Shown here in pieces: positions 18,884 to 44,298 of a DNA stretch of 64,000 bases; the stretch's first letter is position 1, and each line of letters opens with the position of its first letter. Position numbers and translations under genes: made by a program. Below the pieces are notes generated by a model that worked only from the letters and a program-made list of their open reading frames with translations, was not told the origin of the DNA and did no database searches. Origin of the DNA: Coniochaeta sp. PMI_546 (Eukaryota; Ascomycota; Sordariomycetes; Coniochaetales; Coniochaetaceae); contig MU271155.1 in the NCBI GenBank assembly GCA_021432605.1, positions 248,001 to 312,000 on the forward strand, written 5' to 3'.

Positions 18884-20554
18884 CTACATCTCTGGCAGAA
18901 GCAATGGGTCCTTCAACAATCGCTCCATATCTTCGGCCTTCAAGGCAACAGAAATATCAAGGCCGTTGTCAGTCCACGCAGGCTTCCCGTCAGCTACGAC
19001 GTTCTGCCCGGACGGCGGCGCCTCTTTAATGAGTATACACCCATCCATATCTGGCACAACGCCATCAGCATACCGGACAGCAGAACCCATGCCAAAGTCA
19101 ACTTCATATATCCCAGCGCGTGCCCATGTCGTCACGAGTATATGCTTCCGACCCAGGAAAGCCTGCCAGATACGCTGGGGTGACTTCTCAAACGCCAGTG
19201 CGTGTAGATGACAGCCTATCTCTGCCGCATCGCTACACTTCAAGATCACCGAGCGGATGCGCGTAGCGATGTCCTGCAGAGCAAATTCCCCTCCCTGATA
19301 AGCAGCGACCTGAGGTGCGTACATGTCGATGTCGACCATGAGGACCGGAGAACCTATGAAGTCGTCGCCGAGGCGCAACACCTGCCGCATGCCGATGACC
19401 AGATTGCAGTGCACATCTTCAAAGCTCCCGTTCAACTGACGAGCCCGCACGATGCAGGACCATATGTGCGCTAGCACCGCGTCGTGTTTGCTAACCCTGG
19501 CGCCTTTGACTTTGACACCCGAGTCCGCCCCCGGAGGGGTTCGTGTGGCCGCTTCGAACAGGTAATCGACCTGCCTGCGCGTCAAGTGGATGACGTAGCT
19601 CGACACTGGAGCAGCGACGTCCCAATCGTGCCATGGCATCGGAAGGCTATGGCGGGCCGGCTCCAACTCTTGGCCGCGATAGACATCCGGGACGCTGGTC
19701 GGCCAAGGACAGCTTTTCACTGATTCCTCGGCCCACCAGTCGAAGCGACTCATGGGAAGAGACATGGCTGCCAGCACGATTTCCTCGTCATAGTCATCGT
19801 CGTTGATGTCGCCCTGGGCCCAATCATCGACTTTTGCCGGTTCGAACACGGGGCTCAACCGCGGCATGGGCTGACCCTCCAGCATGGCGTGGGATACATT
19901 GCCCCAGTCCTTGATGAGGTGGACCAAGGCCGCGATGTCGGCCATCGGGTGCGCGGATTTGGCGGCTAGGACGAAGCTGCCGCAGGACAGCTGCGTGACT
20001 TGGACTGCGAGTAGGGGCTTTCGGAGGCCATGCTCGTCTGGGTGATTCGGCTCGAGTGTTGAGTGTATCGTTGTTGGGGGAGCAAATCCTTTTAGGGATG
20101 CTTCTCGGCGGTCCCATAAAGGCAGACTTTCTGTCCGGTTGGCCGGATAGAGCGTGTCTAAGGTCGCTTGGCTCGTGGCCGTCACGAACTCGACGCCCGG
20201 GTCTTCACGAGTGCCGAAGTGCGCGTATATGCGACCGAAGCGTCGGGCGTGAGGGGGGAAGTCCCTCGCTTCGTCTCCTGTTGGGCCTGTCAGGGCGGTG
20301 ACTGCCTTGCATTGGCCGCACCATTGCGGATAGCCACTGAGGGTTGTCTGGAGGGATTGCTTGAGATGACGCGCAAGGTCAAAGTCTTTGGGCACATGTT
20401 GGGGACGCTCAAATAGCCAGATGGCTTGAGTGAGGGCGAAGTTCGCAGTTGTCGCGTCCAGGAGCGACAACGGCACCGCGCGCTCGTATGGCGCTGGTGT
20501 CTCAGGCAACACGCGCTCTGTTTTGGTGACGATGACTTCGATTGTTGGCGACAT
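18884..20554 (-). CDS. BAHD-family (transferase family) acyltransferase
   Basis: A single exon of 556 aa with an ATG start. It matches fungal PF02458-type proteins, which move acyl groups from CoA to hydroxyl or amine acceptors. The catalytic HxxxD is HPMAD at residues 202-206. The structural DFGWG motif appears as DFGMG at 486-490, followed by AVRYADG. Length is normal for the family (about 450-560 aa). Such enzymes often decorate secondary metabolites, but the substrate cannot be read from sequence. The inverted-repeat element at 20778-21262 sits 224 bp upstream of the start codon, inside the likely promoter. Confidence 0.88.
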   Translation of the reverse strand: MSPTIEVIVTKTERVLPETPAPYERAVPLSLLDATTANFALTQAIWLFERPQHVPKDFDLARHLKQSLQTTLSGYPQWCGQCKAVTALTGPTGDEARDFPPHARRFGRIYAHFGTREDPGVEFVTATSQATLDTLYPANRTESLPLWDRREASLKGFAPPTTIHSTLEPNHPDEHGLRKPLLAVQVTQLSCGSFVLAAKSAHPMADIAALVHLIKDWGNVSHAMLEGQPMPRLSPVFEPAKVDDWAQGDINDDDYDEEIVLAAMSLPMSRFDWWAEESVKSCPWPTSVPDVYRGQELEPARHSLPMPWHDWDVAAPVSSYVIHLTRRQVDYLFEAATRTPPGADSGVKVKGARVSKHDAVLAHIWSCIVRARQLNGSFEDVHCNLVIGMRQVLRLGDDFIGSPVLMVDIDMYAPQVAAYQGGEFALQDIATRIRSVILKCSDAAEIGCHLHALAFEKSPQRIWQAFLGRKHILVTTWARAGIYEVDFGMGSAVRYADGVVPDMDGCILIKEAPPSGQNVVADGKPAWTDNGLDISVALKAEDMERLLKDPLLLPEM

Positions 20555-20777
20555 AGCCAGAGGTCAATACGCTGCGATATCTAGACATTTGTGTCTCACT
20601 TGAACGAAGTGTCACTAGCGCTATATAGTTCAAAGCTACTGTTGCACAAGCGACGCGAGCGATACGCGTGCGGCGAGTGACTCACGTGGAGATAGATATG
20701 CCCGGCGGAAATGGAGAGTCATCAAGCTTCCACTTTTGGATTAGTGCCTGGTCCACGGGACAAAGCTAGCTGGGCCA

Positions 20778-23083: not shown

Positions 23084-24951
23084 ATGGCCACAATGATATG
23101 GCTCATTGGCTTTGCGTTGTACCTGCTTTGGCAGGTAGACCTGGCACAGGCTAAGGCCAAAGCTGTGTTCGCCCACTTCATGGTAGGTCCAGTACATGTT
23201 ATGAGACATCGGCGTGTATAGAAACCCCAGCTAACTCTATATAGGTTGGCAACACCAAAAGCTTTACCATTGATGACTGGGTACAGCAGATGAATCTTGC
23301 AAAGAACACTGGGATCGATGCATTTGCTCTTAATATGGCCAACAAGGACAGCACAAACGACATCGCCTTGCCTCTCGCGTTTAGTGCTGCTACTCAGACA
23401 AACTTCAAGCTCTTCTTCTCCTTTGACTATGCTGGGAACGGCCCTTGGGACATCACAGACGTGAAAACCACAATCCAGAACTATCAATCCAATCCTGCCT
23501 ATTTCAACAGAGGCTCGAAACCGTTTGTTTCCACCTTCGAAGGGCCGAAGTTGGCATCTGGGTCGAAATCAAACGCGACACGGGCTGCTTTTTCATCCCG
23601 GACTGGTCATCAGTCGGGGCACAACCAGCCGCAGGCCTTGCTAACGGCGTTGCTGACGGTCTCTTCAGCTGGGACGCATGGCCTCACGGGGACCAGAACA
23701 TGACCACCTTTCCTGATGCGTCCTACTATGACTTCCTCGGCGGGAAGCCGTATGTGATGCCTATGTCGCCTTGGTTCTACACCAATCTGCCCGGATACAA
23801 CAAGAACTGGCTATGGAGAGGTGATGATCTCTGGTTCACTGCTGGCAGCAGGTACTATCGCTCGACAGACAGCCGGACTACCTGGAAATCATTTCGTGGA
23901 ACGACTTCGGCGAGTCACACTATATCGGTCCACTAGACACTCGACAACTCGAAGCCTTCGACATTGGTAAGGCACCATTCAACTATGTTCAAGATATGCC
24001 CCACGATGGATGGCGGGACTTTTTGCCTTATCTTATATCTCTATATAAGACCGGTACCGGTTCCTTCAATCAGAAGGGAGTCACGACATGGTATCGACGT
24101 AACCCAAACGGGTCGTGTGGTGACGGCGGCACAACGGGTAACACTGCAAGCCAACTGCAGTATGAGTACTCGCCGAACGTCATGATGAAGGACAGGATCT
24201 TCTATACGGCACTCCTTGGATCCAACGCTCAGGTTAAAGTCTCTATCGGTGGAGTAACCCAGACCGGCATATGGGAACAGCAACCGTTCGGCGGTATAGG
24301 TCTCTACCATGGCAGTGTTCCTATCAATGGTACCACCGGTACCGTGGTTGTAAGCATCGTACGAGGAAGCACCACGATCGCCACCGTCAATGGAGCTTCG
24401 ATCACGACCAGCTGTACTAGCGGCCTGAACAATTACAACGCCTGGGTTGGAAGCAACAAGGCGCCCGCAGCTGGTACCTTCAGCTTGCCTATGAACCTCG
24501 CAGCCTTGAACTGTACCGAAGGATTCGGCGTGTACGACTTTGCTGGGCTTTGCGACTTTTCTTGCCACAATGGATACTGTCCTAGCACAGCCTGTGTATG
24601 TCTCAATAAAGGGGTTGCCAACCCTCCGAACACGACTAGAGTCAATGGCTAACAGCAGCTGGCAAGAGCATGATCTACGAAGGTCTCAGTAGCTTTGACT
24701 GCAACCATGGCTACTGTCCGACGGGCGCCTGCGGCACTACTCCAAACGATGGAACCATTCCGACGTATTCGCCATTCCTGCCGCCTGCTTGTACTGGCGG
24801 TAGCGTACTACCAACGGTCACGGCAGCATTCACCGGACTGTGCGACTTCAGTTACACATTCGGCTTTTGCCCGATGCACGTATGTTCATGCACCAGCACT
24901 AGCGTGCTGGTTGAGAGTTATCAGCCAGACATAGATTTCTATCAAGTATAG
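23084..24951 (+). pseudogene. GH71 alpha-1,3-glucanase (mutanase), three frameshifts
   Basis: Exon 1 (23084-23182) encodes a signal peptide (MATMIWLIGFALYLLW, then AQA). After a 62-nt intron the GH71 domain runs VFAHFMVGN, FALNMANKD, LFFSFDYAG, FEGPK, CFFIPDWSS, GLFSWDAWP, NLPGYNKNWLWRGDDLW, ISWNDFGESHYIGP. Cys-rich repeats (AGLCDFSCHNGYCP, SSFDCNHGYCP, GLCDFSYTFGFCP) end the protein. These pieces lie in three successive frames. Shifts occur near 23545-23560, 23834-23843 and 24640-24655, each equal to loss of one base, with no intron to explain them. All hallmark regions survive, so the decay is recent, or these are assembly errors. An intact enzyme would hydrolyse fungal cell-wall alpha-1,3-glucan outside the cell. 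Confidence 0.82.
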
Positions 24952-26029: not shown

Positions 26030-26269
26030 ATGAAGCTTGCTCTTATTACACTCTTTACCAGCGCCATTCTGGCCGCTCCTGTCGCCCAGAAGTCCACTGA
26101 TGCTACTGACGGTGTCATTACCTGGAATGACAAGCGAGGTGAGGATGCCGCCAATGGCGTTATCACCTGGAACGACAAGCGGGAAGATGATTCCACCAAC
26201 GGAGTGATCACTTGGAATGACAAGAGAGAAGATGCCTCGACCAACGGCGTCATTACCTGGAACGACTAG
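26030..26269 (+). CDS. RiPP precursor with four Kex2-separated GVITWND repeats
   Basis: A single exon of 79 aa. Residues 1 to ~17 form a signal peptide (MKLALITLFTSAILAAP). Four units of exactly 15 residues (45 nt) follow. Each ends in the invariant core GVITWND (28-34, 43-49, 58-64, 73-79). Lys-Arg, the Kex2 signal, follows the first three cores at 35-36, 50-51 and 65-66, and the last core is the C-terminus. Spacers vary (STDATD, GEDAAN, EDDSTN, EDASTN). This is the architecture of ustiloxin/phomopsin/asperipin-type (dikaritin) precursors and of Kex2-processed repeat proteins. The protein has no Tyr, Phe occurs only in the signal peptide, and Trp is the only aromatic residue of the core. UstYa-type genes begin 0.5 kb downstream. 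It could instead give linear secreted peptides, such as a pheromone-like or hydrophobin-like repellent peptide. Confidence 0.85.
   Translation: MKLALITLFTSAILAAPVAQKSTDATDGVITWNDKRGEDAANGVITWNDKREDDSTNGVITWNDKREDASTNGVITWND
26093..26266 (+). repeat. 45-bp coding tandem repeat, four units
   Basis: Units start at 26093, 26138, 26183 and 26228; the last is truncated by the stop codon in place of Lys-Arg. Within the seven core codons the copies differ only at synonymous positions (Gly GGT/GGC/GGA/GGC, Val GTC/GTT/GTG/GTC, Ile ATT/ATC/ATC/ATT). The spacer codons differ in amino acid. Confidence 0.95.
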
Positions 26270-26786
26270 AGGCACAAGATCTGCCTCCCAGTCTCTGGAG
26301 ATGAGTGAGTGCAATCACTTCGCTGTCCTTGTCCAGCGACTAACAGAGGAACCTAGAATTCTGAATGTCAAGGAGAACGCATGGTGGTGCTGTCTCAAAA
26401 CAGACGAACTTATGCCTGAGTATTCGAGCTTTTTGTGGTTGCGTAGACGAGGGCAGTTCAAGGCAGATTAATTCATTTTTTAGCTGCGTAAACTGAAGCA
26501 GTTGCCAACCTAGCTTGTTTGACATACGTGCCTTCTTACACTAATGTGGTGTTCTTCTGTCTACTGATGCCAAGATAACCCAGTTTTCCTCGCAAGCTAT
26601 GGTCCAGAACTGCCATTACTCGGCTGCCACACGCACCTTGTTTTCTAGAAGTCATCTAACTTAGTTATAATTTCGCTCATTCGCTCTACTGGGAATCTTG
26701 CTTCGCACCCGGTCCAGCGATGTAGTCAAGGAAAGAAAATGACAAAGCCATTGCTCCTATCAACGGCTAATTTGATATAAGTCGAT
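26270..26786. other. convergent intergenic region
   Basis: The 3' flank shared by the precursor gene (plus) and the UstYa-like gene (minus). No gene is seen. Confidence 0.4.
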
Positions 26787-27458
26787 CTACGTATCAGCAC
26801 GATAAACCCTCATTCCCCCCAAAACTCGATACCACCCAAACCTCCCTTGCTTTCTACTTTGCGGCCATGGACAGCTCGCATACTTCATATACACGAATTT
26901 CTCTAACCCTGGCCTGTTGGAAATCAACATCTCACAATGGCTCGTATGATGCTCATCCCCAACATAACCGTCCAGCACACCACCACTCATCGCCACCTGC
27001 CAGGTCTTTCGCCAAGTGGCGATGCACTGCGCGATATAGAAGCCCGGCTCGATATAAAGCTTATCCCATTCCCCTGCCAGAACTTCATCTAGCGGGACTT
27101 TGGTGGTGTTGAAGTCAGGACCGGGGTAGAAGGACCATTCTTTCTGGGCGAGGAGGCGGGTTGCGAGGTCAGAGTCGTAACACCGCCTGGGAACCCAACC
27201 CATCAGGACGGCATCGAAGACGCAGTTGTTTCGGCGGGCTGACGAAGGGGACGTGCCGCATTCTTCGGGCGCTTTCTCATTTGGCGCTGTATGCTTGGAC
27301 TGTAGGGTGAAGACCAAGATGATGACGAGAGTGACGGTGAACAGAATAGTTGCAGTGCTGATGAGTGAAACGAGTCTCCTGCGGGTAACGATCGGTAAGT
27401 CTTCATGGTTGGCTTTGGCGCGAAGCTCGCGGTATGGGAAGGCCGTCCTATTGTCCAT
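26787..27458 (-). CDS. divergent UstYa-like membrane protein A
   Basis: A single exon of 223 aa from the ATG at 27458. It has one membrane segment at ~29-52 (RLVSLISTATILF then VTLVIILVF), then a lumenal part with NNCVFDAVLMGWVPRRCYD, EWSFYPGPDF and HHTSHCEML (HxxHC at 171-175). The same CVFD-W-P-CYD, then HHTxHC layout is found in the gene at 32316-33070. UstYa/DUF3328 oxidases carry two HxxHC-type metal motifs. Here the first appears as YIAQC (141-145), having lost both His. It may be catalytically altered or a partner subunit. It is convergent with the precursor gene and divergent from the UstYa gene at 28802. The assignment as a UstYa relative is inference from motif layout and context. 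Confidence 0.7.
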   Translation of the reverse strand: MDNRTAFPYRELRAKANHEDLPIVTRRRLVSLISTATILFTVTLVIILVFTLQSKHTAPNEKAPEECGTSPSSARRNNCVFDAVLMGWVPRRCYDSDLATRLLAQKEWSFYPGPDFNTTKVPLDEVLAGEWDKLYIEPGFYIAQCIATWRKTWQVAMSGGVLDGYVGDEHHTSHCEMLISNRPGLEKFVYMKYASCPWPQSRKQGRFGWYRVLGGMRVYRADT

Positions 27459-28801
27459 ACATGTGTTGGCGGTGCTGGTTTCGGCTGATGGAGTGTGACA
27501 AACTGAGACTGACGAACGAAATAGAGCAGAACCAGTCAAGAACAATTTGGAAGCCGGGAGTGGGCGGGATGGGAGTGACGCAGTCGTTGGATGTGCTGGT
27601 ATGACAACCCTGTGATCGGCCAGCTACTCAGGCCCGAAAGGAAGTGATATCACGATTCGTTAGAGATCACATAGACCTGCCAATTCCGGAAGCCTAAGAG
27701 ATAGTATAATCACGTCTAGCTGCAAGTGTACCCCAGCCCTTTGAAGGGCAAGCAATACAATCCTGCACGAAACATGCCGTATCCTTCGCTGACAGCACTG
27801 TTTCTGAGATCTCTCTCTTCAATGAGGATCCCAGGTACGTCCAAATTGTAAGCCGGTTCCGCGTAAACAGATTTTACCGCAAGACTTCGGTGAACCATGC
27901 AGTCATTTTACGATCATATTACGCGATTAGATACCCCTTGTGATACGCGTGAGAAGACTACGGTGGTTGTTGGTCAAGCAGCGGCGTCGTAACAAACCCC
28001 AAACTTCTGGTTGTCGACCTCCCGCCGATGCCTCTGTTGCCACAAAGCTCCGCAAAAACTCGAATGTCTGCAGAATACAACCCATGTAACAGGTAGCAGC
28101 GCATATGGTGTTGATTCCTAGTCCTAGGCTTTGACCAACTTACGGACTGCCGTGTGCACTGATAGCCCAGATTGATGATCAATCGATCCGATGTCATAAT
28201 CCTGAATCCACCGAAGAACCGCCGTTCCAACATATGAAAGCAGTGCATGTTGTCGATACATTCTGCATAGAGTCGACCATGCTATGGGGTTGGTGGCCTG
28301 CAAGAACCAGCTGCTCTCAAACATCTAGTGGTCCTGGGTCAGAAAGCTTGAGCGTGTATTCGCTTGTTCTATCAGCCGCCCCGAAGTGTATCGGGCTGGA
28401 AATCTTAGCGCGTATTTGTTGCCAGAAGGAGTTCAAGTGGCATATTACTCTATAATGATGTGGAGACCTTACGAGAAGACTTGGTGTGACGCAGTGACGA
28501 AGCTTCTCGTCAGTTGTTTTGAGAGCGAGTCGAGTTCCGCATCAAGGAGACTATTGGTTGGATACGTCTAAGCCCTCCGAGTATTCCGGATCGCGTACCA
28601 CATCAGAAACGGAGGGGAAACGGTGGGCTGATGATCCTTCTTGTCATGTATCTGCGCTACTTACACGTATATGCAAGCCATATTAAGAGAAATCTGCAAC
28701 ATTTTCAACCCATATGCCGGGCTGCTCTTGGGTACCACTTCTGGCATTCCTATCGTCTCAGTTCATCTCTTCATGCCAATTATACGGGCAAAGAGACCAC
28801 G
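27459..28801. promoter_or_regulatory. divergent intergenic region between two UstYa-type genes
   Basis: This 1.3-kb stretch separates the starts of the genes at 27458 (minus) and 28802 (plus). Minus-strand ORFs at 27958-28324 have some protein character but no recognised family. No regulator gene is found. Confidence 0.35.
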
Positions 28802-29980
28802 ATGGAGAGACTCAAATCAGTGCTCACACGACTAAGATTCCAGACCTCTTCAAATGAAATCGATGTGATCTACGAAACGCTCGGAGCATCCTCAGATTCG
28901 AGCGAGAAGCTTCTTTCCCCGCGAGACAGAGAAGATGTCGTTCACAATCTCCACAACGACCTTAGGAAGACCAGGTTGCGAATGAAAATGTTGACGACGG
29001 TGTTGACGGGTTTGGTAGTCTTCATATCACTCCTTTGGATCATAAGGGAATTCTCTGAACAGCGGATCTCAAGGAAGTTGACGATTCACAGTAAGCTGCC
29101 TTAGCTTTCCAGCCATTCTCCCGTCGCGAGATACTCTACGAATCTCAAGGCACTTACGATCGTTTGCCGCAGGCAAAGCTGCAGACAATATAAAGTTCGT
29201 CTACAATAAGGTACCCGAAGTGTTCTCACCCGCCATGGAGGCGGTGGAGTACAAGGAGGTCGTCTTCCACAACAATTTTCGGCAGGACCGCACCAAATGG
29301 CAAGGTCCGCCAGATGATGAAGTTGATAAGGCGTGGAGGGAGATCTACGTTGGTAAGTAGAAATATCTACTTTCAATCTTAATCAGGTCTCATGTTGACA
29401 TGGAATGCATCAGACATTGGCGTCATCAAAATCCCTAAAGCGGATGCTGATAAACTTCCAAACGCAACACTGCCTATCCCAGGAGAAGAGGACGGGTATA
29501 TTATCGCCTTGGAGGTATATCACCAGTTACATTGCTTGGTAGGTTTCTTGATCAAGTTCATGCCTACACCATAACAACTGACTCGCCATCATGAGCAGGA
29601 TCTCCTCCGCAAGCATCTCTATCCCGACCGCTACGGTGCCGACAGACAAATGAGTTCCCGCGCCAAGAAAAAATACTGGGTTCATCTAGGTCTGCACACA
29701 TTCAACCTCCGAACACCTCGTTCCACGGACTAACCCCTTGGTCACAACAGAGCACTGCATAGACAACCTGCGGCAGACCATAATGTGCCATTCCGACGTC
29801 AGCACAATCCCCTGGATAAACCACGACCTGGGCGGTCAGTTTCCCGACGCTCACTCAACGCATGTCTGCAGGGATTTTGACAAGCTCACCGCATGGATGC
29901 TGCATCCGGATCGCCATTTCCCGCAGGAGGAGTTTCAGCGGCGGTATGACGCGCTGCATGGGACTATCGGAGGGCATTAA
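28802..29980 (+). CDS. UstYa family (DUF3328) oxidase B
   Basis: Five exons: 28802-29090, 29173-29352, 29414-29538, 29599-29689 and 29751-29980, giving 304 aa. A charged cytosolic N-terminus is followed by one membrane segment (~66-84, MLTTVLTGLVVFISLLWII). Then come family landmarks: YSP-type segment VFSPAMEAVEYKEVVFHNNF, GPPDDEVDKAWREIY, and the two motifs YHQLHCL (HxxHC, 193-197) and EHCIDNLRQTIMC (HC at 230-231), ending with STHVCRDFDKLTAWM. UstYa proteins install oxidative crosslinks or oxidations in fungal RiPPs such as ustiloxin, asperipin and cyclochlorotine-type products. All introns are 60-82 nt with good boundaries. An upstream in-frame ORF extension lacks support, so the ATG at 28802 is used. 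Confidence 0.9.
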
Positions 29981-30431
29981 GAAAGATACAATGTTGATTT
30001 GGTTGTTAGCCGACTTAAATTTCACGGAGCTCGTTTCTATCTTGTTGTGAGCTAGTCCGCAAAAGTCAGGCAGTGACGGTTCTTATTAGGTTGTTCACAT
30101 GACAAATGCAGCTTGCAATGTATACCACTTTGGAACATGCCACAATAAAAGTCTGAAGTAGTATATTTCCACACGGTGAGCACTTAACTACATGACTCCA
30201 GTAGATACATGGGTGCTCGCAATGTCGTCAGGGTAGCCATAAATATGTTGTGCATTCGGGTTCACACAGTCGCAAGCTTGCGCACCATAGTTTGGAGTCA
30301 TCCATTCAGATAGCCCAAGGCTATACTACAGATGGAGAACACACCAGAGGCAAGCGAGATGTGTGCAAACAGAGATGACAGCCATTTCAGAAACGCAACC
30401 GCAATACCACTTAATTATCTCAAAATACTAG
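29981..30431. other. convergent intergenic region
   Basis: Space between the two tail-to-tail UstYa genes. No gene is seen. Confidence 0.4.
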
Positions 30432-31498
30432 TCACTGCGGTTGGATAGCACTATCTCCCTGAAACCGATCAACCATCCAATCTCGTAATGCGTCAAAGTT
30501 CCGACAAGTATGCGGCATCTCCGACTCGACGTAGTTTCTTCCCAGCCCGGGGTAGTACTTGGTCGGCACCGGCGTCATATCCCCTGAGCACATGATGAAC
30601 TGCCGGATGTGGTCAATGCAGTGATCCTGATGCACCTCAGGATGACCGCCGTATTTGCCATTGGCAAACTCATACACGGTGCCGTAGTAGGACGGGTTGA
30701 GGGATTTACGGATGTGGTTCTGTTCCTCATTAGCTTGGTACCTTGACCGGAGCAAAGAAGGATGAAGGGGCTACGAACCAGGCAGTGGAGGGTGTGGAAC
30801 ATATCAAATCTTAACCATCGTGTTAGCATCAGCTGGAACAGCAGCTGGAACGGATGACATAAAACTTACCCAGCAAGATACCCGCCCCTCTTTGTATCCC
30901 AATATTCCTGCGTGGCATACTCCTTCCCCCAAGCCTCGATGGCCTCCTCCTTTGTGATGAGAACATAGCGACCTGGTCAACAAACTCAGATACATATCAC
31001 CCAATTACTTGTCACGAGCGGTTCAACTCACCCCAGGTCAAATTATCCCAGTTGTGATCTATCTCCGGATACACCTTCGGATCACCGATAAACCTTGTCT
31101 CGCCCATGTTGGGAATCAACATCATACCGTCCTCATCGAACGAGGCACCGCCAGTGAACCGTTGCTGGGATACGTGAATATAATTCTTCGCAGGTCCTGC
31201 TTGAAACATCAGTTCTGTGTCGCTACGATTTGGCGAGGACGCCATCGGACGTACCGAAATCCGTGGCGTAACCGCTCGCAAAACTCCCCAGTCCGTCGCT
31301 TGGTTTTCGATCGATGAGTATCGCGAGAAAAAGGGAGAGTGAGGCAAAGACAGCTGTAAGAGTCCATGGTACCAAGGGTCGGAGAAGAAGACTTCCAAGC
31401 CGTCGCTGATGGGTGTCGCCGTCGGCGAGGAATGGGCCATCGTCATTTGAGTCGCGAGCGGAGACGGCGGCGTACCTCACTTTCCCAGTCAAAGGCAT
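30432..31498 (-). CDS. UstYa family (DUF3328) oxidase C
   Basis: Five exons: 31498-31255, 31196-31032, 30972-30870, 30809-30779 and 30719-30432, giving 276 aa. The fourth exon is only 31 nt but carries the first metal motif. Landmarks are a membrane segment at ~42-60 (VPWTLTAVFASLSLFLAIL), FIGDPKVYPEIDHNWDNLTW, RYVLITKEEAIEAWG, MFHTLHCL (HxxHC, 176-180), then HQDHCIDHIRQFIMC (HC 214-215) and PHTCRNFDALRDWM. Intron sizes (58-60 nt) are uniform. It is convergent with oxidase B and divergent from the UstYa-like gene at 32316. Two canonical UstYa proteins per cluster is common in dikaritin pathways, where they often act together. Confidence 0.9.
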
Positions 31499-32315
31499 GG
31501 TGGCCACTTGAACTGAATCTCTCGGCGAGTTGTCTAATCAAATTCAGGCTATCTTGTAGAAATCCAGGTGCATCAAAGTGGCGCAAGGGACGATGAGGGA
31601 GTGAAAACTTGGGCGGTCTGGCGTGCCGCAGGACCAGAGGAAGACAATATGTCGGGCCCAACTCAACTGCATTCTCCTCAAGCGAGTTTGACAATATGTC
31701 GAGTTGGCTGGCGTGAAAGGACGCTATCGACGATCTTCGGGGTAATGTTAGCCTCCGAGACGGTTGTAAAACGGTGCGGATGGAAATATGCATCCAATAA
31801 CACGACCAAATAGGAAGGTTGCAAAGGAGGTTCCAAAGATGGGTTGAGACTCATTCTCAGATGTTGGCAGAGTAGAGATTCCAACCACCAACTTTACCTA
31901 TCATAGGATTCCAAAGTCGTGGCAGGCATACGCGGATCTATGCAACCACTGTGTTAGTGACACGCAGTGCGTATACGCGGTGGGGTAGCAAGGTAGCATC
32001 CATACATGGCACGGTTGGTGCCAGTCCACGACCTCCTATTGGCTTACATTCGACAATTTCCCTGGCATTATATTTCGTTCCCTCCTCGGATCCCCGGCGA
32101 GGTAAGGGGGACTTGAGAACGAATGTACCGCGCGTCCAAATCAGCTTTGCGCAGCTTCCAGCGACCTCCACACTCTTCCAATTCCTTCATCCTCGTGAAC
32201 CAAATCTGGTTCTAACCTTTCAAGTGCCATTTCGAAGCCCTCGTCTTCAAGTTCTGCCAACTTGCCCTCTTGAGTACACAGCAACCAACCATCGCCACTT
32301 TTCTATGAAGCCACT
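31499..32315. promoter_or_regulatory. divergent promoter region of UstYa-type genes C and D
   Basis: This 817-bp stretch lies between the start codons of the genes at 31498 (minus) and 32316 (plus). A C/T-rich leader precedes 32316. ORFs inside it have no recognised features. Confidence 0.4.
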
Positions 32316-33070
32316 ATGTCCCCCGAACGCGAATCCATACAGAAACCTTCCTTTGACGACAGCGACGATGCATCTGGCATGACTCTATTGCATGAGCACA
32401 TGAAAGACTCAATGACGGCACATCCACGCGGCTTGAGAGCCTCTAGCTTGCTGTTGAAACTCTTCCTGGGTACCATCGTGCTCATTTGTGGCGTCTCAAT
32501 CGTTTACACGGCAGCGGGTGTCCACCGTCTATCCTCGGCAGCCACAGCTGACTATGGCAACTGTGGCCAGAGCGAGACGGTTGAGGAAGCCCGCGAGAGG
32601 GGATGCGTCTTTGACCCCATGAGTTGGATCTGGGTGCGCCCGGAGTGCTACGATGCTGAGCTGGTCGCCGAATTCATGAACCGCACCAGCTTTTCGTGGC
32701 ACACGGAGCCCAAGCTCAAGCCCGAGACCAAGTTGGGCATGGACGTCATTTTTCGGGGTGACCACCCCAAATTGTTTACTCAGAAGGACTACCATACCGT
32801 CCACTGTTTTGTCAGACTCAATCCGCCTCTTCATATCTTAGCAACCCAGAGACTGACCTACTAATTCCCTCGCAGTACATGATGAAAAAGATGCACAAAG
32901 CGATTCTCGAGCATCGGCCCATTGACAGCTACCTGACCGAGTGGCACCACACCAACCACTGTGGCATGGTCATGCTCAACGATATCTTACATGAGGACAC
33001 GGACTGTGCTGCACCCAAAATCTGTCCGACATGGGTCAGGGCGACGTGGACTGCTTGTCGCCGATATTAG
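32316..33070 (+). CDS. divergent UstYa-like membrane protein D
   Basis: Two exons: 32316-32810 and 32876-33070, giving 229 aa; the intron falls directly after the first metal motif. It has one membrane segment (~43-67, SLLLKLFLGTIVLICGVSIVY), then RGCVFDPMSWIWVRPECYDAELV, TSFSWHTEPK, DYHTVHCF (HxxHC 160-164) and EWHHTNHCGMVML (HxxHC 190-194). Both metal motifs are intact here, unlike its relative at 26787-27458. The shared CVFD-W-P-CYD block defines a subfamily distinct from canonical UstYa. Proteins with this block are often annotated only as hypothetical. A role as oxidase in maturing the precursor at 26030 is inference from layout and neighbourhood. Confidence 0.75.
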
Positions 33071-35809: not shown

Positions 35810-37205
35810 GGAGGCGGGAGAGGTAAGGATTTGAAACAGATATCGAAGTCTTAGTGTTGATCTTACCACAATATAACTGCTGATGAGATGAGCTGTTACC
35901 ACAAGAGAGCAGTCATTTCACCTTGTGAGTAGAACGGAGGGAAGTCGAAATGAGTTGGATGATGTCAGATAGCCTCTGCGAACACTCGTCAAGTGCGTCG
36001 ATGATGATGACGACATGAAATCTGCAGATGCCTTCCCCGTGGCTGTGGCGTAGCAGATGTGACAACTGAGGTGTGGCCAACTTGCCCGACAACCGTTAAC
36101 AGCAAGAAAGATGTGATGGTGCTGTTGGCGACTGGCGGGGAAGGACTCCCTTTCAATCGCGAGACCACAGCGCAAATTCATGCACAGATGCCCGTGAACT
36201 CAGACCGACGGGGATTGTATCGTAACATTCAGCGACACGAGGTTCTGATCGTAATGCTGCGCGAGGAGGCCAAGGGCAGCGGGACGACACGTAGCCTATC
36301 TGGTACGCAGTCGCCAAAGTTCGTGTACCAATGGCTCTATGATGTTTCTCATGTACCACGCACGGAGCGTGACTGTGTCTTTTGACCCATGATCTAAAGA
36401 AGCGGTAGCCCCTCCCACTGTCCGGGATGGACATGGGTGTGCGACGGCCCCAGCCGTGATGATCGCGCCGCCGTAGTGTACCGAATCTCCTTGTTCATAT
36501 GGGCCTATACGCGACCGAATAATCTGTGTAACGGTCTCTCTCGAGACAATTGAGTTTCGGTACCAGCTGTTTAAGTCATCTCAACTTGAGTCTCGGGAAC
36601 TTGAACCTCGTTGCCTTTCACCTAGTTCTGCCTGGCTTCCAGGCCAAATTCCACAGCTCATACATACTTAGTATAGGAAGCATCAATTCAAGGTACTCAG
36701 AACGGATTAGTCCAATAAAATGGGTATGATTGAAGTGTAGAGAGGATAGGGATTACAATAAGATTTCTGTCCCCTTACTGTACGTAGGTCTGAGCATCGG
36801 AGAACTAGCCGTGTGTAGATCTCTAGCCGTAGCTTGGCATCTGGGCAGTCAGGGGAACGGCCACTTCTGCCCCATCTAATTGGCTGTGATGGTCGCAACG
36901 CATAGTAGTAATTCTAAGAAACTGTTGCCTGGCCAATTGCTCCTCGACAATCTCTCCCCGTGGCTTGATGAAGCATGGGAACAGGTCCGAATCTTCGACC
37001 GAAATGCAACCATGATGGTCGTGCTACGATAGAACATTACACGTGTGGGCAGCAGTGGCACATGGTGGTAAGAGATGTGACATTATAAGACTCGTACGCT
37101 ACATATAAATATACCAGACACCTTCAGTCCAAGCGCTTCCAGAAACCTCACAGAAGAGTTGGCCAGGCGTGATCTGCAAGCATCACAACTGTCACCGGTG
37201 AGACC
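35810..37205. other. intergenic, no supported gene
   Basis: Overlapping ORFs at 36059-36434 on both strands have no recognisable features. The right end is the promoter of the NLP gene. Confidence 0.4.
37102..37113 (+). promoter_or_regulatory. TATA box of the NLP gene
   Basis: CATATAAATATA lies about 95-105 bp before the ATG at 37206. Confidence 0.5.
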
Positions 37206-38024
37206 ATGACAGCCTCAATGACCATGCTGCTGAGTGCGGCACTGCTCCTGACGGCTAATGTGCCATTTTCCCATGCCATTCCTCTTGAAGCTCTTAACAT
37301 CCTTCAGTCCCGGGCTGTCAACCCTCCCACTGCCCTTCCCCAGAAAGCAACAGCGAATGACCTCCGCTGGCAACCATCCATGGACTTCGACACCGATGGG
37401 TGTTACAACGTCCCTGCTATCGACGCGCAGGGAAACATTGCCCAGGGCCTGCCACACAATTTCGTCGGGCTAGCTCAAGACTGCCACGACCTCTCAGACC
37501 TAGATAATAACAACGTATACTCCCGACAGCGCTGCAATAACGGCTGGTGCGCGTATCTATACGACTACTACTTCGAAAAGGACGTGGCGATCGCCAACTT
37601 CTACGATGTAGGCCACACCCACGACTGGGAGCACATCGTCGTCTGGGTCAAGGACAACAAGGCGCAGTACGTCGCAGCCTCTGCTCACGGCAAGTACGAG
37701 GTCAAGGCCGCCGCTGACGTCCGCTGGGACGGGGAGCATCCCAAGATGGTGTACCACAAGGACGGGTTGGGTACGCACGCATTCCGGTTCGCGAATGCGG
37801 ATGACGATAAGATTGAGAATGCCAAGGGAGTGTGGTTTCGGGGAGCGCTGGTGAGTTACAATGGGTATCCCGCCGGGATCAGGGATAAGCTATTCGCGCA
37901 TGACTTTGGGGATGCGACGATGGCCAGCCCGGATTCCAGATTTGCGAATAATCTGAATAATGCGCGACCAGCTGGGATTACCTTCGATACGGGGGTTGAT
38001 GATGGGAGCCCGGGCACTCCTTAG
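37206..38024 (+). CDS. NPP1 / necrosis- and ethylene-inducing-like protein (NLP)
   Basis: A single exon of 272 aa. A signal peptide (~1-24) is followed by a short pro-region and the NPP1 domain (~52-265). The family's hallmark central heptapeptide is present at residues 136-142 as GHTHDWE. Its third residue differs from the basic residue usual in cytolytic members; the acidic and His residues that bind the metal are kept. Four Cys are visible in the first half of the domain (66, 93, 110, 115), consistent with disulfides of a secreted protein. Family members are secreted by plant-associated microbes. Some lyse dicot cells by binding sphingolipids and others are not toxic. Which applies here cannot be told from sequence. 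It stands alone between intergenic stretches. Confidence 0.92.
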   Translation: MTASMTMLLSAALLLTANVPFSHAIPLEALNILQSRAVNPPTALPQKATANDLRWQPSMDFDTDGCYNVPAIDAQGNIAQGLPHNFVGLAQDCHDLSDLDNNNVYSRQRCNNGWCAYLYDYYFEKDVAIANFYDVGHTHDWEHIVVWVKDNKAQYVAASAHGKYEVKAAADVRWDGEHPKMVYHKDGLGTHAFRFANADDDKIENAKGVWFRGALVSYNGYPAGIRDKLFAHDFGDATMASPDSRFANNLNNARPAGITFDTGVDDGSPGTP

Positions 38025-38592: not shown

Positions 38593-40421
38593 CTACTCAG
38601 GAATACTATGCTCAGATGCAGGCACACCAGTTTTCCAGTGGAACTTTGCCGCCACATGCTCTTCTGGCGGGTTCTTCTGCCCAGTTTGCCCATAGAAATT
38701 CTCCCGGTACGTGCCACCCGGCACGGCATAATCGTCCCAGAATAGACCTCGTTTCTGCAGCTCTGGAAGCAGCAGCTCGATGATATCCTTGAACGATTGA
38801 GGGAATAAAGCGTACGCCTGCAAGGACCGTCAGCTAAGTTGGTATCATGGCTCCAAAGAGTTGACACTTACGAAGTTAAAGCCATCAACATCTGCTTCTT
38901 TCACCCAGGTCTCGAGGCCATCGGCAACCTGCTCAGCTGTGCCGACGAAAATTGGGCCGTTGCCGCCGATACTAACGTGCTCGGCGACGGTGTGCTTGGT
39001 CCATTTCGAGTTGTGCGGCGAGAAACGAGCGTATGCGTCGACAGTTGACCTTTCTTGCCGTTAGCTTGAATGTCGAGATACGTGGCGTGTCAATGATAAC
39101 CACTTACTTGACAGCATTACTCTCCACATGTCGCAGCTCCTCATCATCACCATACTGGTTCAGATCAATGCCCGTCCACCCGCCAAACAGTGCCAATGCC
39201 CCTTCATGCGAGGCATACTTTCTGTAATCCGCCAATTTAGCCTGAGCCTCCTCCTCAGTCTTCCCCAGAATAGGTGTAACCAGGGCAAGCACCTTGATGC
39301 TCTTTGGATCCCGCCCATACTGCGTCTTAGCCAGTTCCCTGACCTCAGCGATGTTCTTTGCGCAAACAGCTGGCGCATGAGCGGAGACAAAGATCGCCTC
39401 GGCGTGTTGAGCAGCAAACTGCTTCCCCGCGCGGGACGTGCCGGCTTGTAGGAGGAGGGGCGTGCGTTGGGGACTGGGCGCGACGATATGCGGGCCCGGG
39501 ACGGTAAAGTATTTGCCTTGGTGGTTGATCTCGCGGACGAGGGCGGGGTCGGTGTAGACGCCGGTCTCCCTGTTGAGTTTCACGGCGTCGTCGCGCCAGG
39601 AGGACTGGAAGAGTTTGTACATTATGCGCATGTACTCTTCTGCTTGGGCGTAGCGGTCATCGTGCTGACTAGATTAGGCTTGTGTGCAAGTGAAGATACG
39701 TAGGATGCGGAGGCTTACTGCTGGCTGCTCTGCTCGACCTAGGTTCCGGGCTGCGGAGTCAAGGTAGCTCGTGACGATCTGTGTCCTGTTAGGGTTCTAA
39801 TCACGAAGGCACCGGAAGGATAGCGCGTTTTTGCTCACATTCCAGCCAAGTCTGAGCACGCGTTAGTCAGGACACTTCCAAGTGTAGAGATGCCGCAGCC
39901 CTTACCGTCCTTTGGTGAGGTGGTCAACCGTTGACAGTCGGCGGGCAAGATGATACGGTTGCTCATATGTAGTAGACACCGTCACTCCGAAGCCAATACT
40001 CTTGGTCGCTGCAGCCATTGCAGGCACGACAGAGAGGGGTTCGTGGACGGGCCATTGCGCACCGGACGTGATGGCGGGTTCTAGAGATTTCTTGTAGACG
40101 TCGTATCCGCCTTCGAAATATCAATATCACACTTGAAGAAGGCCACAAGGGAAAAACCTACCTAGCACGTCAGCAATGAAGATGCCGTGGAATTTGGCGT
40201 CTTCGAGTAGCTTTGCTAGCTCGACCCAATGGTCGACATCTGTAAAGCGCCACGACTGGTCGTCAGGGTGGCGCCACAGTCCCGGAGACTGATGCCCACT
40301 GCCTGTATACAGACTGTGAGCAATAGCATTTTCTCTGAGACATCATCTAAGACGTACACATCTCGACGAAGGCATTGAGAATTAGGCGCTTCTTGCCGGT
40401 ATCTGCGTTTTGGGTCGCCAT
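38593..40421 (-). CDS. luciferase-like FMN-dependent monooxygenase 1 (NtaA/SnaA/DszA type)
   Basis: Eight exons: 40421-40358, 40302-40162, 40110-39906, 39851-39839, 39778-39719, 39664-39108, 39049-38872 and 38817-38593, giving 480 aa, normal for the family. The fourth exon is only 13 nt. Landmarks in order are [119 protein letters not shown] and [10 protein letters not shown]. These enzymes use FMNH2 from a partner reductase plus O2 to oxidise substrates such as nitrilotriacetate, sulfones or sulfonates. No flavin reductase is seen nearby. A second family member lies at 50032-51665. It is divergent to the reductase gene at 40970. Confidence 0.88.
39839..39851 (-). other. 13-nt microexon
   Basis: The exon reads A CTT GGC TGG AAT, encoding the end of Arg plus LGWN of the conserved KGR[LI]GWN motif. 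Introns of 54 and 60 nt flank it, with donors GTAAGG and GTGAGC. In the paralogue at 50032 the same motif is within one exon. Confidence 0.75.
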
Positions 40422-40969
40422 GTTTATCTCGGCGTGTTGTTGTCTTCGGTGCGCGGTCTGGATTAGGTTTGGAGCGCGATTCGAGAATGGCGTTCCTCTG
40501 GAGTCGCCAAACCGCTTTAACACGGCTTTTTCGGGGTATATGAACCGACGTCCGGATGTGAAGTTGGTGTGGCCGGACCGGAGCGTATAGCTTCGTAGCG
40601 TTGCTTGGCTTACACGATTGCATCATCGTCACCCACAATGGCGCTCATCCGATGCGGCAACGACCACCAAAAGACTCACATCCACTCGCGTCACACCATT
40701 ACCTAGGCAATTCTTACGGTAGTTACAGCGAGGAAATGATTGACGAAGTTCGGTGGGGTAGAAAGTCCGGCGTCGCTCTGCCAGACTTGCACGCACTTGT
40801 GTTCTCTTTGATGGATTCCACTTTGCGTGGTAATACCCCATATCAGTATTATAGGACATGAACGTTGTATCATGCAACTTTATTGCCATTTCCCTTAGAC
40901 ATAGACACCGGGGCATACATAAACACCGTGAACATACTTTGATCTGGTTGATACACACTCGTCGAAGCA
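40422..40969. promoter_or_regulatory. divergent promoter region
   Basis: This 548-bp stretch between the starts of the luciferase-like monooxygenase 1 gene and the reductase gene would allow co-regulation. No site is identified. Confidence 0.4.
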
Positions 40970-42329
40970 ATGAGTAGCTGGTCTCGGATACGTCGATTCT
41001 CACTGAGACGTCAAAGCAAGTCTCAGGATGTTCAACCTCACAACACCACAGAGGAACGACCAGAATCGCCACCAGTACCCGAGACGCAGACCGTGCTCTT
41101 ACTACACGGAGCTAAACAACAATACCAACTCACCGAAGGCCACCCGGTCCCTAAAGCTGAGACTGAGCATGAATTGCTCGTAAGAGTGCGAGTCATCGGA
41201 CTGAACCCAATTGACTGGAAAGCACCGTAAGTTGCAGCGTCTGATCGTCCTTGTCTCTGACCAACTCGCTGATAATGGTGCCAGCGACTTCAACTTTGGC
41301 ATTCCTGAACTTCCATATGTTTCCGGAAGAGAATTTGCTGGGGACATTGTCAAACTACCAGCCAAGTCCGGGAGGCTTAAGGTTGGAGACAAGGTGACTG
41401 TCATATCGACGGATTACCGTGACTTGAGGAAGGCGGCGTATCAGCAGTATGCCGTTGCCTTCGACTATAACGTGGTAAAGCTCCCTGCCCAGATGTCCTT
41501 GCAAGAAGGAGCGACACTTGGTGTTGCATTTGTTGCAGCCGTCCTTGCTTTGGGCGTGTCAATGGGCGTCGACTTCTCGCATGTTCTTGATGGACCAGAT
41601 TTGCTGAAGAGTCTGCGGGACATCGATCCGGAGGTACTACCAGCTGACATTCGCGGCGAATGTCTCAACGGCATCCAGGAACATGAGAGAGCAAAGTCCG
41701 GGGACTGGCTCGCGATATGGGGCGGGTCGGCCACATCCGCCAACCTCACCATCCAGCTCGCCCGTCTCGCAGGGCTGAAAGTTATAGCTATCGTAGACAA
41801 GGCGAAACACGGTCTGAGACTCTCAAACCACAAGGTTCTCCGTCCGGATCTGCTAGTCGACAGCCACGACCCCAACAGGGCCGTCGACATCATCCGCGCC
41901 AACACCCATGGGAAGGTCCGCTTTGGTATCGACACGCGGGGACGAGACACTGCTGCTCATTTACTCCGAACATTGACCCCAGACAACTTGGCATCCACGT
42001 CAGCAGCCGACGGGTCACCGCCATCGCCACCAGCTACACCACAGAGCACGACGCTGCTCTCGGCGCACTTGATCGGGCTCACTGGTCTTCCGAAAGGAGC
42101 ACCACCAGAGGGTGCGTTGTTTCACACCGTTCCTATCAAATTGTTCCATGAGGTCCCAGAGATTGGCTTGTCGCTGGTGACCTGGTTGGAGAGACTGTTG
42201 GAACAGGGTCTGGTGGTCCCGCCTGAGATCCTCGATGTCGAAACCGGGTTTGAGAGCGTGAATGGCGCACTGGATAGAATGAGGAAAGGGGAAATCAGTG
42301 GTGGGAAGCTAGTTGTTGAGGTTGCTTGA
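40970..42329 (+). CDS. LovC/toxD-like zinc-independent MDR oxidoreductase
   Basis: Two exons: 40970-41226 and 41285-42329, giving 433 aa. It is a medium-chain dehydrogenase/reductase with ELLVRVRVIGLNPIDWK (GroES-like fold), PYVSGREFAGDIV, the family insert GVDFSHVLDGPDLLKS, and a nucleotide-binding stretch GDWLAIWGGSATSANL (~residues 235-255) in place of a plain GxGxxG. The lack of zinc-ligand patterns fits the trans-enoyl-reductase/toxD-like group, NADPH enzymes common beside secondary-metabolite genes. An N-terminal extension of ~45 residues rich in Arg/Ser and Pro precedes the domain. The start is the only ATG that keeps the extension in frame; a shorter start cannot be excluded. Confidence 0.85.
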
Positions 42330-42682
42330 CGGGCGTAAACTATACCAATTTCAGAATAGTGAGAGGCCACATAGACAAGGAATCATATATGCCTGTTCAA
42401 GCTGCCTATCGATAGTCATAAAGATACTATATGATGAGACTAACATGCCAGAAGTAGATTAGGGAAGAGAGCACAATTACTCATATATTAGCAATGTCTT
42501 ACTACCCAGAGTTGGAATTTCCTTATATACCGTCACTAGACTTTACCGATATCTAGTAGTGCCAAGAGGACGGTGCACAAGGTTTCATTGTGCGACACGA
42601 TTAACTAATGGCCAATTTTCTATCTTAAGTCTTGTCTTCAAAAGTTGCTGGTCACCACAAAGTCAATTTTCATGCCGTGACA
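42330..42682. other. convergent intergenic region
   Basis: Tail-to-tail space between the reductase and UNC93-like genes. No gene is seen. Confidence 0.4.
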
Positions 42683-44298
42683 TTACGATTCCTTTGGATT
42701 GACGTGGTCCACCTCTTCGCCTGAAGTTGTCTCGCGTGACTGAGCCCCTTGCGCTGATTTCGTGACTTGCCCTTCCTCCAGCTGCGTCCCATTAGTGCCA
42801 AAGTGCCGAAGAACCAGCCAAGCCGGGAAAATGGACAAAGCCCATAGCCCAAAGTTGAGATAGACACCGCCAACCTGGCCAAACACCGTCAACGACCCAA
42901 GGCCGTAGCTAACAGCTTGCCATGCAGACTCCGTTCCACGAAGCAATGCTGCGAAGCGGATGACGTCCGGCTCATCTTCAGCCAAGTTGTGGATGATGAA
43001 ATACCTGTGAGTGTTAGTGAGTTCTCGTTGAGACTGGGTCGTGAGTCTTACAGAAAGAGGTAGTTGATCTGGAAGCCGATAACGAGGAACAAAAAGACGC
43101 CGAAGGCTGAGCCGAAATGATCGCTCGACCAGTCGTACGTTGGCAGCGTGTTCCGAAATCTGGAGACCAGTATCGTGGCCCAAATCCACCAAGCGCCCTG
43201 AAGAATTACAATAGTCCAGAAGGACGATCGCGCCCGGGTCTTGAGTGGAACCTTAGTTCGGTCGAGCCATGCTCCGAGTAAGTTGCCGGAAATCACGGCG
43301 ACGATGCCCGAAAGAAATGAGCCGAGAGCTCGTGCTCTCACGGAGAACCACACTACATATAACGTTAGAAAAGACTTGATAAGCACCAGGGAGCCCGAAG
43401 TTACCCACATGACAGATAGGTAAAGAAGACAGCCTCTGCAAATACGGCCTGCCCGATGAAGAGTATGATCAACAAGAACTTTTTGCTAAAGAAGAGACGC
43501 GTGGTAGTCTTGATCTCATGCCACGGATGCTGCGTGATACTCAAGTCAACCTTCTTCCCGTCCTTACGTTGCACTTTCTCAGGTTTGTTAAGCAGCAACG
43601 CAACGAATGGTCCAGACGCTTGAAGACCGATGAAGACCAGGAAGACAGTATACGACACTTTTCCGGCCTCGTCCCTGTCCGCATTGAGACCAAGGTTAAT
43701 GGCTCCTCCCAAGATCTGGCCGCTGAGGCGGTAGGTCAACCAGTACCCCAGCGCTTTGCCTCGGTTCCAGGGTTCAGGATATGCTATAGCGATAGCTGCT
43801 TCGGCCATCCAGAAGACGCCGGCAGAGATACCGCACAGTGCGGCGCCGAGAAGAGTCAGCCATTCGGTGCCGAAGCGGTTGTTGGTGTAGAGACCGGCGG
43901 CATACGGTGCGTAGCCGATTGTTCCGAAGATCAAGGCACCCTTGATACCGATATAGTGTACTAGAACACTAGAAAAGTAGCATGACACTACCATCAGGCA
44001 GAACGTGAGGGCGTTGGCGGCGTTGACAAGTTTAGGTGTCGCTGCGCCTCCTGCTCCCAGGGAGTTCATGGCTCCCCAAATACCGGGGGCTGCGAGGTTG
44101 CATAGCCCTAGAATTGTGATGTTGTAGAAGGTTGATCTGTACCATTTCACTGTCGAGGTGTGTTAGTGTTTGGTCTTTGTTGTCTGGTTTCTCCGTCTCC
44201 AATATCAAAAGGCCCGTACCTGGATGCTGCTGATCCTGCGGCGGCTCAAACTCGCTCTCCGTATGCCTGGCAACTGCAACTTTTGGAATAGCCTCCAT
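42683..44298 (-). CDS. UNC93-like MFS-fold membrane transporter
   Basis: Four exons: 44298-44220, 44149-43409, 43352-43052 and 43004-42683, giving 480 aa. About 11-12 hydrophobic segments are visible. Family signatures are STFYNITILGLCNLAAPGIW at the first helix, MNSLGAGG, YAPYAAGLYTNNRFG, AGVFWMAEAAIAIAYPEP, GKALGYWLTYRLSGQILGG and FSVRARALGSFLSG. The third intron is short (47 nt). Fungal UNC93/DUF895 proteins are poorly characterised plasma-membrane or endomembrane transporters. The acidic C-terminus (EEVDHVNPKES) is probably cytosolic. The ATG at 44298 is used; a GTG-started extension upstream is not supported. Confidence 0.88.

What the first reader, a model, noticed from the sequence alone, without database searches (positions are those of the whole stretch)
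26030..33070. Candidate new dikaritin-like RiPP cluster
Seen: a signal-peptide-bearing 79-aa precursor with four Kex2-delimited GVITWND cores, followed within 7 kb by two canonical UstYa oxidases and two divergent UstYa-like membrane proteins. Known: UstYa proteins crosslink or oxidise cores cut from such precursors (ustiloxin, phomopsin, asperipin). Inference: this locus makes an undescribed modified peptide.
Basis: partly seen in the sequence, partly recalled or inferred. Interest (0 to 1): 0.95.

Follow-up and report, generated by a model that had tools for sequence, protein, structure and literature searches.

The report
Fungal modified-peptide gene cluster, tryptophan core
A Coniochaeta fungus carries a small gene whose protein is probably cut into four copies of a short peptide, beside genes for copper enzymes of a kind known to tie such peptides into rings; it looks like a real but unstudied member of a known class of fungal peptides, with tryptophan where the best-known members have tyrosine.

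Summary
At 26030-26269 (+) an intact 79-codon gene encodes a signal-peptide-like start and four identical GVITWND cores; three KR sites part them, 15 residues apart. The core copies differ by at least 7 nucleotide changes, all synonymous, so the peptide is probably under selection. Within 7 kb follow two canonical UstYa oxidases (B, C; PF11807) and two divergent relatives (A, D) that Pfam misses. D keeps both HxxHC motifs, A one. D relatives share contig length with B or C relatives in 6 of 36 records, so the enzymes form an old set; the precursor has no detected relative. The genome is Coniochaeta sp. PMI_546. There, 7 of 18 UstYa loci, this one included, have a repeat precursor beside them. 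Best reading: a dikaritin-like RiPP cluster making a modified peptide from GVITWND. The class is known, and over 1700 such pairs were predicted in print. Unusual is the tyrosine-free core; three other UstYa loci here also have tyrosine-free cores. That a crosslink forms, and that these enzymes act on this peptide, is inference.

The parts
26030..26269 (+). Precursor gene, 79 aa, four GVITWND cores, three KR sites, single exon
   Evidence: Translation; core pattern found only here in the genome; synonymous-only divergence of the cores
26030..26074 (+). Probable signal peptide MKLALITLFTSAILA (cleavage site uncertain)
   Evidence: Hydropathy; no SignalP available
26111..26131 (+). Core copy 1 GVITWND
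26156..26176 (+). Core copy 2 GVITWND
26201..26221 (+). Core copy 3 GVITWND
26246..26266 (+). Core copy 4 GVITWND, ends at the stop codon
26787..27458 (-). Gene A, 223 aa, divergent UstYa-like membrane protein; first motif degenerate (YIAQC), second kept (HTSHC)
   Evidence: 28% identical to D over 152 columns; alignment; motif count; no Pfam match
28802..29980 (+). Gene B, canonical UstYa oxidase, 304 aa; exons 28802-29090, 29173-29352, 29414-29538, 29599-29689, 29751-29980; HQLHC and HLEHC
   Evidence: PF11807 181 bits; public record P0038 equals its last 187 aa
30432..31498 (-). Gene C, canonical UstYa oxidase, 276 aa; exons 31498-31255, 31196-31032, 30972-30870, 30809-30779, 30719-30432; HTLHC and HQDHC
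   Evidence: PF11807 131 bits; identical to public record P0037
32316..33070 (+). Gene D, divergent UstYa-like membrane protein, 229 aa; exons 32316-32810, 32876-33070; HTVHC and HTNHC
   Evidence: 36 relatives; both motifs kept in 14 of 15 aligned relatives; family aligns to UstYa at both motifs
27459..28801 (.). Shared upstream region of divergent genes A and B
   Evidence: gene models
31499..32315 (.). Shared upstream region of divergent genes C and D
   Evidence: gene models

Best explanation
This is a dikaritin-like RiPP cluster of five genes. Shown from sequence: a repeat precursor with a signal-peptide-like start, four identical GVITWND cores and KR sites; two UstYa (DUF3328) oxidases; and two membrane proteins of a divergent branch of the same superfamily. 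Inferred: the precursor enters the secretory pathway; the luminal copper oxidases B and C, perhaps with D, oxidise the core, most likely at Trp together with a neighbouring side chain (Ile, Thr or Val), giving a Trp-linked ring or a hydroxylation; KexB cuts after KR, and exopeptidases trim the acidic spacer (GEDAAN, EDDSTN, EDASTN). A, with one HxxHC motif only, is more likely a non-catalytic partner than an oxidase. The product is a small modified peptide for export.
For: Precursor anatomy; synonymous-only divergence of the cores; PF11807 matches of B and C. D family: both HxxHC motifs in D and in 14 of 15 aligned relatives, aligned to UstYa exactly there (E 8.7e-5, probability 60), and each motif lies in its own helix of the model, below a long N-terminal helix (H52-89, H171-189, H201-216), as described for the copper enzyme CctR (PMC12435403, part 1 of 3 of the text). 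Repeat precursors lie beside 7 of 18 UstYa loci of this genome, this one included. Two of three A/D-like matches outside the window lie within 1.2 kb of a UstYa match (C12, C14), and both loci have a precursor. Published survey: 1758 of 7878 Kex2 repeat proteins have DUF3328 genes nearby, mean distance 3.09 genes; pheromones almost never (PMC7329392, passages and Discussion).
Against: No transcript or metabolite seen. The core has no Tyr; two papers call Tyr mandatory or essential for cyclisation in ustiloxins, phomopsins and (first paper) asperipin (PMC7329392; PMC6339444). No peptidase, methyltransferase or tyrosinase domain was found inside 25.9-33.1 kb; the nearest found are a tyrosinase ORF at 52573-53223 and a methyltransferase at 62028-62984. 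Relatives of B, C and D exist in other fungi in which no GVITWND protein was found, so the set might have another substrate. Of 12 UstYa loci seen at 10 kb or more, 5 have no precursor by my rule, and the A/D-like gene at C8 has neither UstYa match nor precursor. One of 15 aligned D relatives (P0016) has lost both motifs. Shared promoter words are marginal: 3 shared 8-mers against 0.67 expected, reached in 10 of 200 shuffles; none at 9 or 10 bases. DUF3328 proteins also act in non-RiPP pathways (PMC12048977).
Confidence: 0.75

Rival explanations
1. The precursor yields a linear secreted signalling peptide (pheromone- or hormone-like), cut by Kex2 and not modified; the UstYa genes are neighbours with another job.
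For: The Kex2 repeat layout is shared with alpha-type pheromones and other secreted peptides (PMC6339444, abstract and sections 16 and 17); the core has no Tyr.
Against: In the published survey none of 227 yeast alpha-factor-type and 3 of 216 other pheromone-type repeat proteins had DUF3328 neighbours (PMC7329392). No pheromone Pfam family matched the precursor at E up to 1. Six other UstYa loci of this genome also have precursors.
Confidence: 0.12
2. B, C and D are an old enzyme set with a conserved substrate encoded elsewhere or not ribosomal; the precursor came beside it by chance.
For: No relative of the precursor was found.
Against: The precursor search needs three shared 5-residue words and a predicted protein of 0.55 to 1.75 times its length; it did not return this genome's own precursor either, although B and C of this genome are in the database, so absence elsewhere may be missing annotation. 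Repeat proteins vary fast: most are unique at least at genus level (PMC7329392).
Confidence: 0.1
3. A decayed or silent cluster: the genes are not expressed, or A's lost motif marks decay.
For: A lacks one of two copper motifs; no expression data.
Against: All five reading frames are open with GT-AG splice sites in my models, and the cores look selected.
Confidence: 0.03

Closest known systems
Ustiloxin B cluster (UstA, UstYa, UstYb), Aspergillus flavus
   Same: Signal peptide, repeated core between Kex2 sites, UstYa-type oxidases
   Different: Core YAIG with Tyr; a tyrosinase and a methyltransferase act in its pathway (PMC12048977). Here Trp, no Tyr, and neither domain found between 25.9 and 33.1 kb
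Phomopsin cluster
   Same: Repeated core, several DUF3328 proteins (5 in phomopsin, PMC7329392; 4 here counting the divergent ones)
   Different: Core begins YVIP, with Tyr
Asperipin-2a cluster
   Same: Kex2 repeat precursor modified by a DUF3328 oxidase
   Different: One DUF3328 protein; Tyr in the core
Victorin cluster
   Same: Listed among dikaritins (PMC12048977); its core lacks Tyr (recalled, not checked)
   Different: Different core and gene set (recalled)
CctR, copper-dependent DUF3328 hydroxylase of cyclochlorotine
   Same: HxxHC(x)nHxxHC, single membrane helix, luminal helical domain (PMC12435403)
   Different: Acts on a non-ribosomal peptide; A and D here are not matched by the Pfam model
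DUF3328-accompanied Kex2 repeat proteins of PMC7329392 (1758 predicted)
   Same: Same layout; 20.5% of their repeats hold Trp
   Different: GVITWND not in its text; its supplements could not be read

Membership tests
Dikaritin RiPP | DUF3328/UstYa protein as class-defining enzyme (definition as told in PMC12048977) | tested here: met
   B 181 bits and C 131 bits against PF11807, cut-off 25
Dikaritin RiPP | Two HxxHC motifs in the enzyme | tested here: met
   B HQLHC/HLEHC, C HTLHC/HQDHC, D HTVHC/HTNHC; not in A (YIAQC/HTSHC)
Dikaritin RiPP | Precursor with signal peptide and repeated cores between Kex2 sites | tested here: met
   signal peptide by hydropathy only
Dikaritin RiPP | Tyr in the core, as in ustiloxin, phomopsin and asperipin (not part of the newer definition) | tested here: not met
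   GVITWND has no Tyr
Dikaritin RiPP | Older five-gene definition: tyrosinase, methyltransferase, peptidase or transporter in the cluster | tested here: not met
   None found in 25.9-33.1 kb; tyrosinase ORF 19.5 kb and methyltransferase 29 kb beyond gene D. Pfam saw the five gene products and 35 ORFs, among them 32 of the 78 window ORFs of 130 aa or more; short exons may be missed
Dikaritin RiPP | Crosslinked product | not testable with these tools
   Needs mass spectrometry or NMR
Alpha-type pheromone precursor | Match to a pheromone Pfam family | tested here: not met
   Only four sub-threshold matches to unrelated families at E up to 1
Alpha-type pheromone precursor | No DUF3328 gene nearby (statistical trait, PMC7329392) | tested here: not met
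   Two PF11807 genes within 5.3 kb of the precursor
UstYa superfamily, for A and D | Match to PF11807 above cut-off | tested here: not met
   0 families for A and D at E up to 1
UstYa superfamily, for A and D | Profile-level homology with both HxxHC motifs in register | tested here: inconclusive
   D family: hhalign E 8.7e-5 but probability 60, both motifs in register; A only through 28% identity to D

The most novel reading that the evidence does not exclude
UstYa-type copper oxidases in this fungus work on cores without tyrosine. Here the core is GVITWND; other UstYa loci of the same genome have DAIWLW (C11), VLGDASMD with no aromatic residue (C14) and EPHHQG (C3). If modified, these need chemistry other than the Tyr-ether crosslink: a Trp-to-side-chain ring here, with B, C and D as oxidases and A as a partner that lost its copper site.
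Probability: 0.4. Interest if true: 0.7.

Novelty: new member of a known kind. Interest (0 to 1): 0.52.

Why it matters
If true, it gives a compact, testable case of a Trp-based fungal ribosomal peptide, and enzymes (B, C, D) with linked relatives in several fungi whose substrate can now be sought. The precursor was not returned from a protein database that holds B and C of the same genome, so such clusters may be under-counted by annotation. Several Tyr-free cores beside UstYa genes in one genome would show how wide this copper-enzyme family's substrate range is.

Tried and rejected
Precursor homologue search: no candidate sharing three 5-residue words. PDB sequence search with the profile of D, 15 relatives and A, and with the B/C profile: 0 matches at E up to 1. 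Foldseek against PDB: D-relative model 1 match, E 8; UstYa-relative model (mean pLDDT 67.5) 127 matches at E up to 10, none at 0.001; neither is usable. Shared promoter words: marginal.

Paper searches: ITWND, 0 papers; Coniochaeta with RiPP, 7 papers, one on repeat proteins; fungal RiPP, UstY, macrocyclisation, tryptophan, 16 listed; DUF3328 since 2022, 17 listed; Kex2 repeat proteins since 2021, 4. By titles and abstract starts I saw no Trp-linked dikaritin, but I opened only four papers, none of them whole. A link to N. crassa POI2 was considered; no genomic context for Neurospora was at hand, so it is untested.

Scan details that count against tidy numbers: a repeat at L052 8620-8985 met the rule but was not counted, since no signal-peptide exon was looked for; frame-shifted echoes of two precursors (L052, L055) were dropped. 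accept any dibasic site; the C11 and C3 precursors have KK, a weaker Kex2 site than KR (recalled). The C2:2461k precursor met only the looser rule (two exact copies before dibasic sites, a third copy visible). Of 18 UstYa loci, 12 were seen at 10 kb or more (7 with a precursor) and 6 at about 3 kb (C4:2608k, C1:1387k, C1:896k, C1:3213k, C2:111k, C22:187k; 0 with one). One search warns that its matches are lower bounds. A comparison with random genome regions was wanted and not obtained; the non-UstYa DNA scanned was 56.8 kb of this window and 10 kb at C8, 0 hits.
Full report
What is there. The window is contig C13 248001-312000 of a 33.5-Mb, 24-contig genome. Gene C equals, letter for letter, a protein of Coniochaeta sp. 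PMI_546 on a contig of 667,004 bp, the length of C13, and the last 187 residues of B equal a second one. So the organism is that fungus; the genus lies in Sordariomycetes, Coniochaetales.

The precursor at 26030-26269 is a single open frame of 79 codons with a hydrophobic start. Four identical GVITWND cores sit at 15-residue spacing; KR follows the first three. The six residues before each core vary (STDATD, GEDAAN, EDDSTN, EDASTN). The core DNA differs at five third-codon positions with at least seven changes, none of which alters the peptide; under random change the chance is about 1.6e-5 to 5.5e-5. This is good evidence that the repeat is translated and matters. The pattern for GVITWND occurs nowhere else in the genome.

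Neighbours. Order and direction are precursor (+), A (-), B (+), C (-), D (+), so A/B and C/D are divergent pairs with shared upstream regions of 1.3 and 0.8 kb. B and C are plain UstYa proteins with both HxxHC motifs. A and D match no Pfam model at E up to 1 but are related to each other (28% identity over 152 columns). D has 36 relatives in the protein search, with names from Rhypophila, Echria, Podospora, Coniochaeta, Copromyces, Xylariaceae, Diaporthe, Beauveria, Penicillium, Cladophialophora and Microthyrium. I aligned D, A and 15 of the 36: both HxxHC motifs are in D and in 14 of the 15; P0016 has neither and A only the second, with YIAQC in place of the first. Profile comparison of the D family (15 sequences) with UstYa relatives (23) aligns these motifs to each other, E 8.7e-5 but probability only 60. 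The AlphaFold model of a D relative (P0002; mean pLDDT 77; residues 1-50 low) has a long N-terminal helix and two later helices that hold one motif each, which agrees with the architecture told for the copper enzyme CctR (PMC12435403, part 1 of 3 of the text). I read A and D as a divergent branch of the UstYa superfamily, A probably without an intact dicopper site. That is inference.

Conservation. Of the 36 D relatives, 6 have a contig length equal to that of a B or C relative: Rhypophila decipiens (B and C), Copromyces sp. (C), Echria macrotheca (C), Podospora didyma (B), Cladophialophora carrionii (B; adjacent locus tags), and an unnamed contig of 16,314 bp (B). All three enzymes thus appear together only in Rhypophila; both searches reach only relatives that share exact words. 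I take equal length as same contig and have not read that DNA; for the contigs of several megabases this shows little about closeness. Identities of these partners are 44-76% to B and 56-58% to C. No relative of the precursor was found; this genome's own precursor was not returned either, while B and C were, so missing annotation can explain that.

The same genome as a control. One search gave 34 UstYa matches (a lower bound), which I group into 18 loci including this one. With a scan for dibasic-flanked repeats precursors appear beside UstYa genes at 7 of 18: this one; C1:371k (VQYYPS); C11:415k (DAIWLW); C12:606k (DGIYIGPG and FDYVGPG); C14:303k (VLGDASMD); C3:2354k (EPHHQG); and C2:2461k (QVYGAHLL, looser rule only). 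Signal-peptide-like starts lie upstream of 5 of the 6 others in a frame that would need an intron, which I did not model; at C3 the hydrophobic stretch is in the repeat frame without a visible Met. Twelve loci were seen at 10 kb or more (7 of 12 with a precursor), six at about 3 kb (0 of 6). A/D-like matches also lie near UstYa matches at C12 and C14, where precursors lie too, but the one at C8 has no UstYa match and no precursor within 10 kb.

Mechanism. Most likely the precursor is exported into the secretory pathway, oxidised there by B and C (with D), cut by KexB at KR and trimmed to a product around GVITWND. The bond is not known; Trp with Ile, Thr or Val is my best guess, since Trp is the only aromatic residue. 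Shown: anatomy, signs of selection on the core, enzyme families. Inferred: localisation, order of steps, chemistry, and that these enzymes act on this peptide.

What is known. The survey PMC7329392 (12 of 29 passages on my terms, and the Discussion) predicted 7878 Kex2 repeat proteins, 1758 of them with DUF3328 genes nearby; [quoted passage not shown] So Trp cores beside such enzymes have been seen in bulk; it also names di-histidine cores with Pro, one type of which lists Coniochaeta, and the C3 core here resembles these. PMC12048977 (12 of 13 passages) gives the class definitions used above. PMC6339444 (abstract and sections 10, 16, 17) describes the repeat proteins in general and calls a conserved Tyr essential for cyclisation. 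I found no paper with ITWND; supplements could not be read and most subscription journals are not held.

Verdict. Observation confirmed; interpretation well supported but unproven. A new member of a known kind, with a Tyr-free core that makes its chemistry worth testing.

Noticed in passing
L053 (C11:410500-420499) 7044-7373: Tyr-free repeat precursor with DAIWLW cores mostly followed by KK, beside a UstYa gene; signal-peptide-like stretch MHFKQLALVAPLLLALVAGAP upstream in another frame.
   Followed up: partly
L050 (C14:298000-307999) 2400-2807: Repeat precursor with about a dozen VLGDASMD/VLGDSSMD units before KR and no aromatic residue in them, near a UstYa match and an A/D-like gene that has both HxxHC motifs.
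   Followed up: partly
L049 (C12:600500-610499) 2451-2789: Repeat precursor with alternating DGIYIGPG and FDYVGPG units, near a UstYa match and an A-like match.
   Followed up: partly
L052 (C1:367000-376999) 3567-3845; also L009: Repeat precursor with VQYYPS cores before KR, divergent from a UstYa gene about 1 kb away.
   Followed up: partly
L055 (C3:2350000-2359999) 7442-8323: Long repeat precursor with 12 EPHHQG units near a UstYa match, like the published di-histidine type.
   Followed up: partly
L054 (C2:2457000-2466999) 2981-3274: Repeat protein with three QVYGAHLLKM(K/A)EDDF units near a UstYa match; found by the looser rule.
   Followed up: partly
L040-L043 (C4:562500-580499, C1:2343000-2362999): Two stretches with several UstYa matches in which my scan found no repeat precursor.
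   Followed up: partly
37173-38021: Necrosis-inducing protein (NPP1 family) ORF, 198.5 bits, downstream of the cluster.
   Followed up: no
39107-53223: Stretch with two luciferase-like monooxygenases, a zinc-type dehydrogenase, two MFS-type transporters, an FMO-like oxygenase and a tyrosinase ORF: possibly a separate metabolic cluster.
   Followed up: no
18887-20563 and 23245-24649: Transferase-family (PF02458) protein and a GH71 glycosyl hydrolase upstream of the precursor.
   Followed up: no
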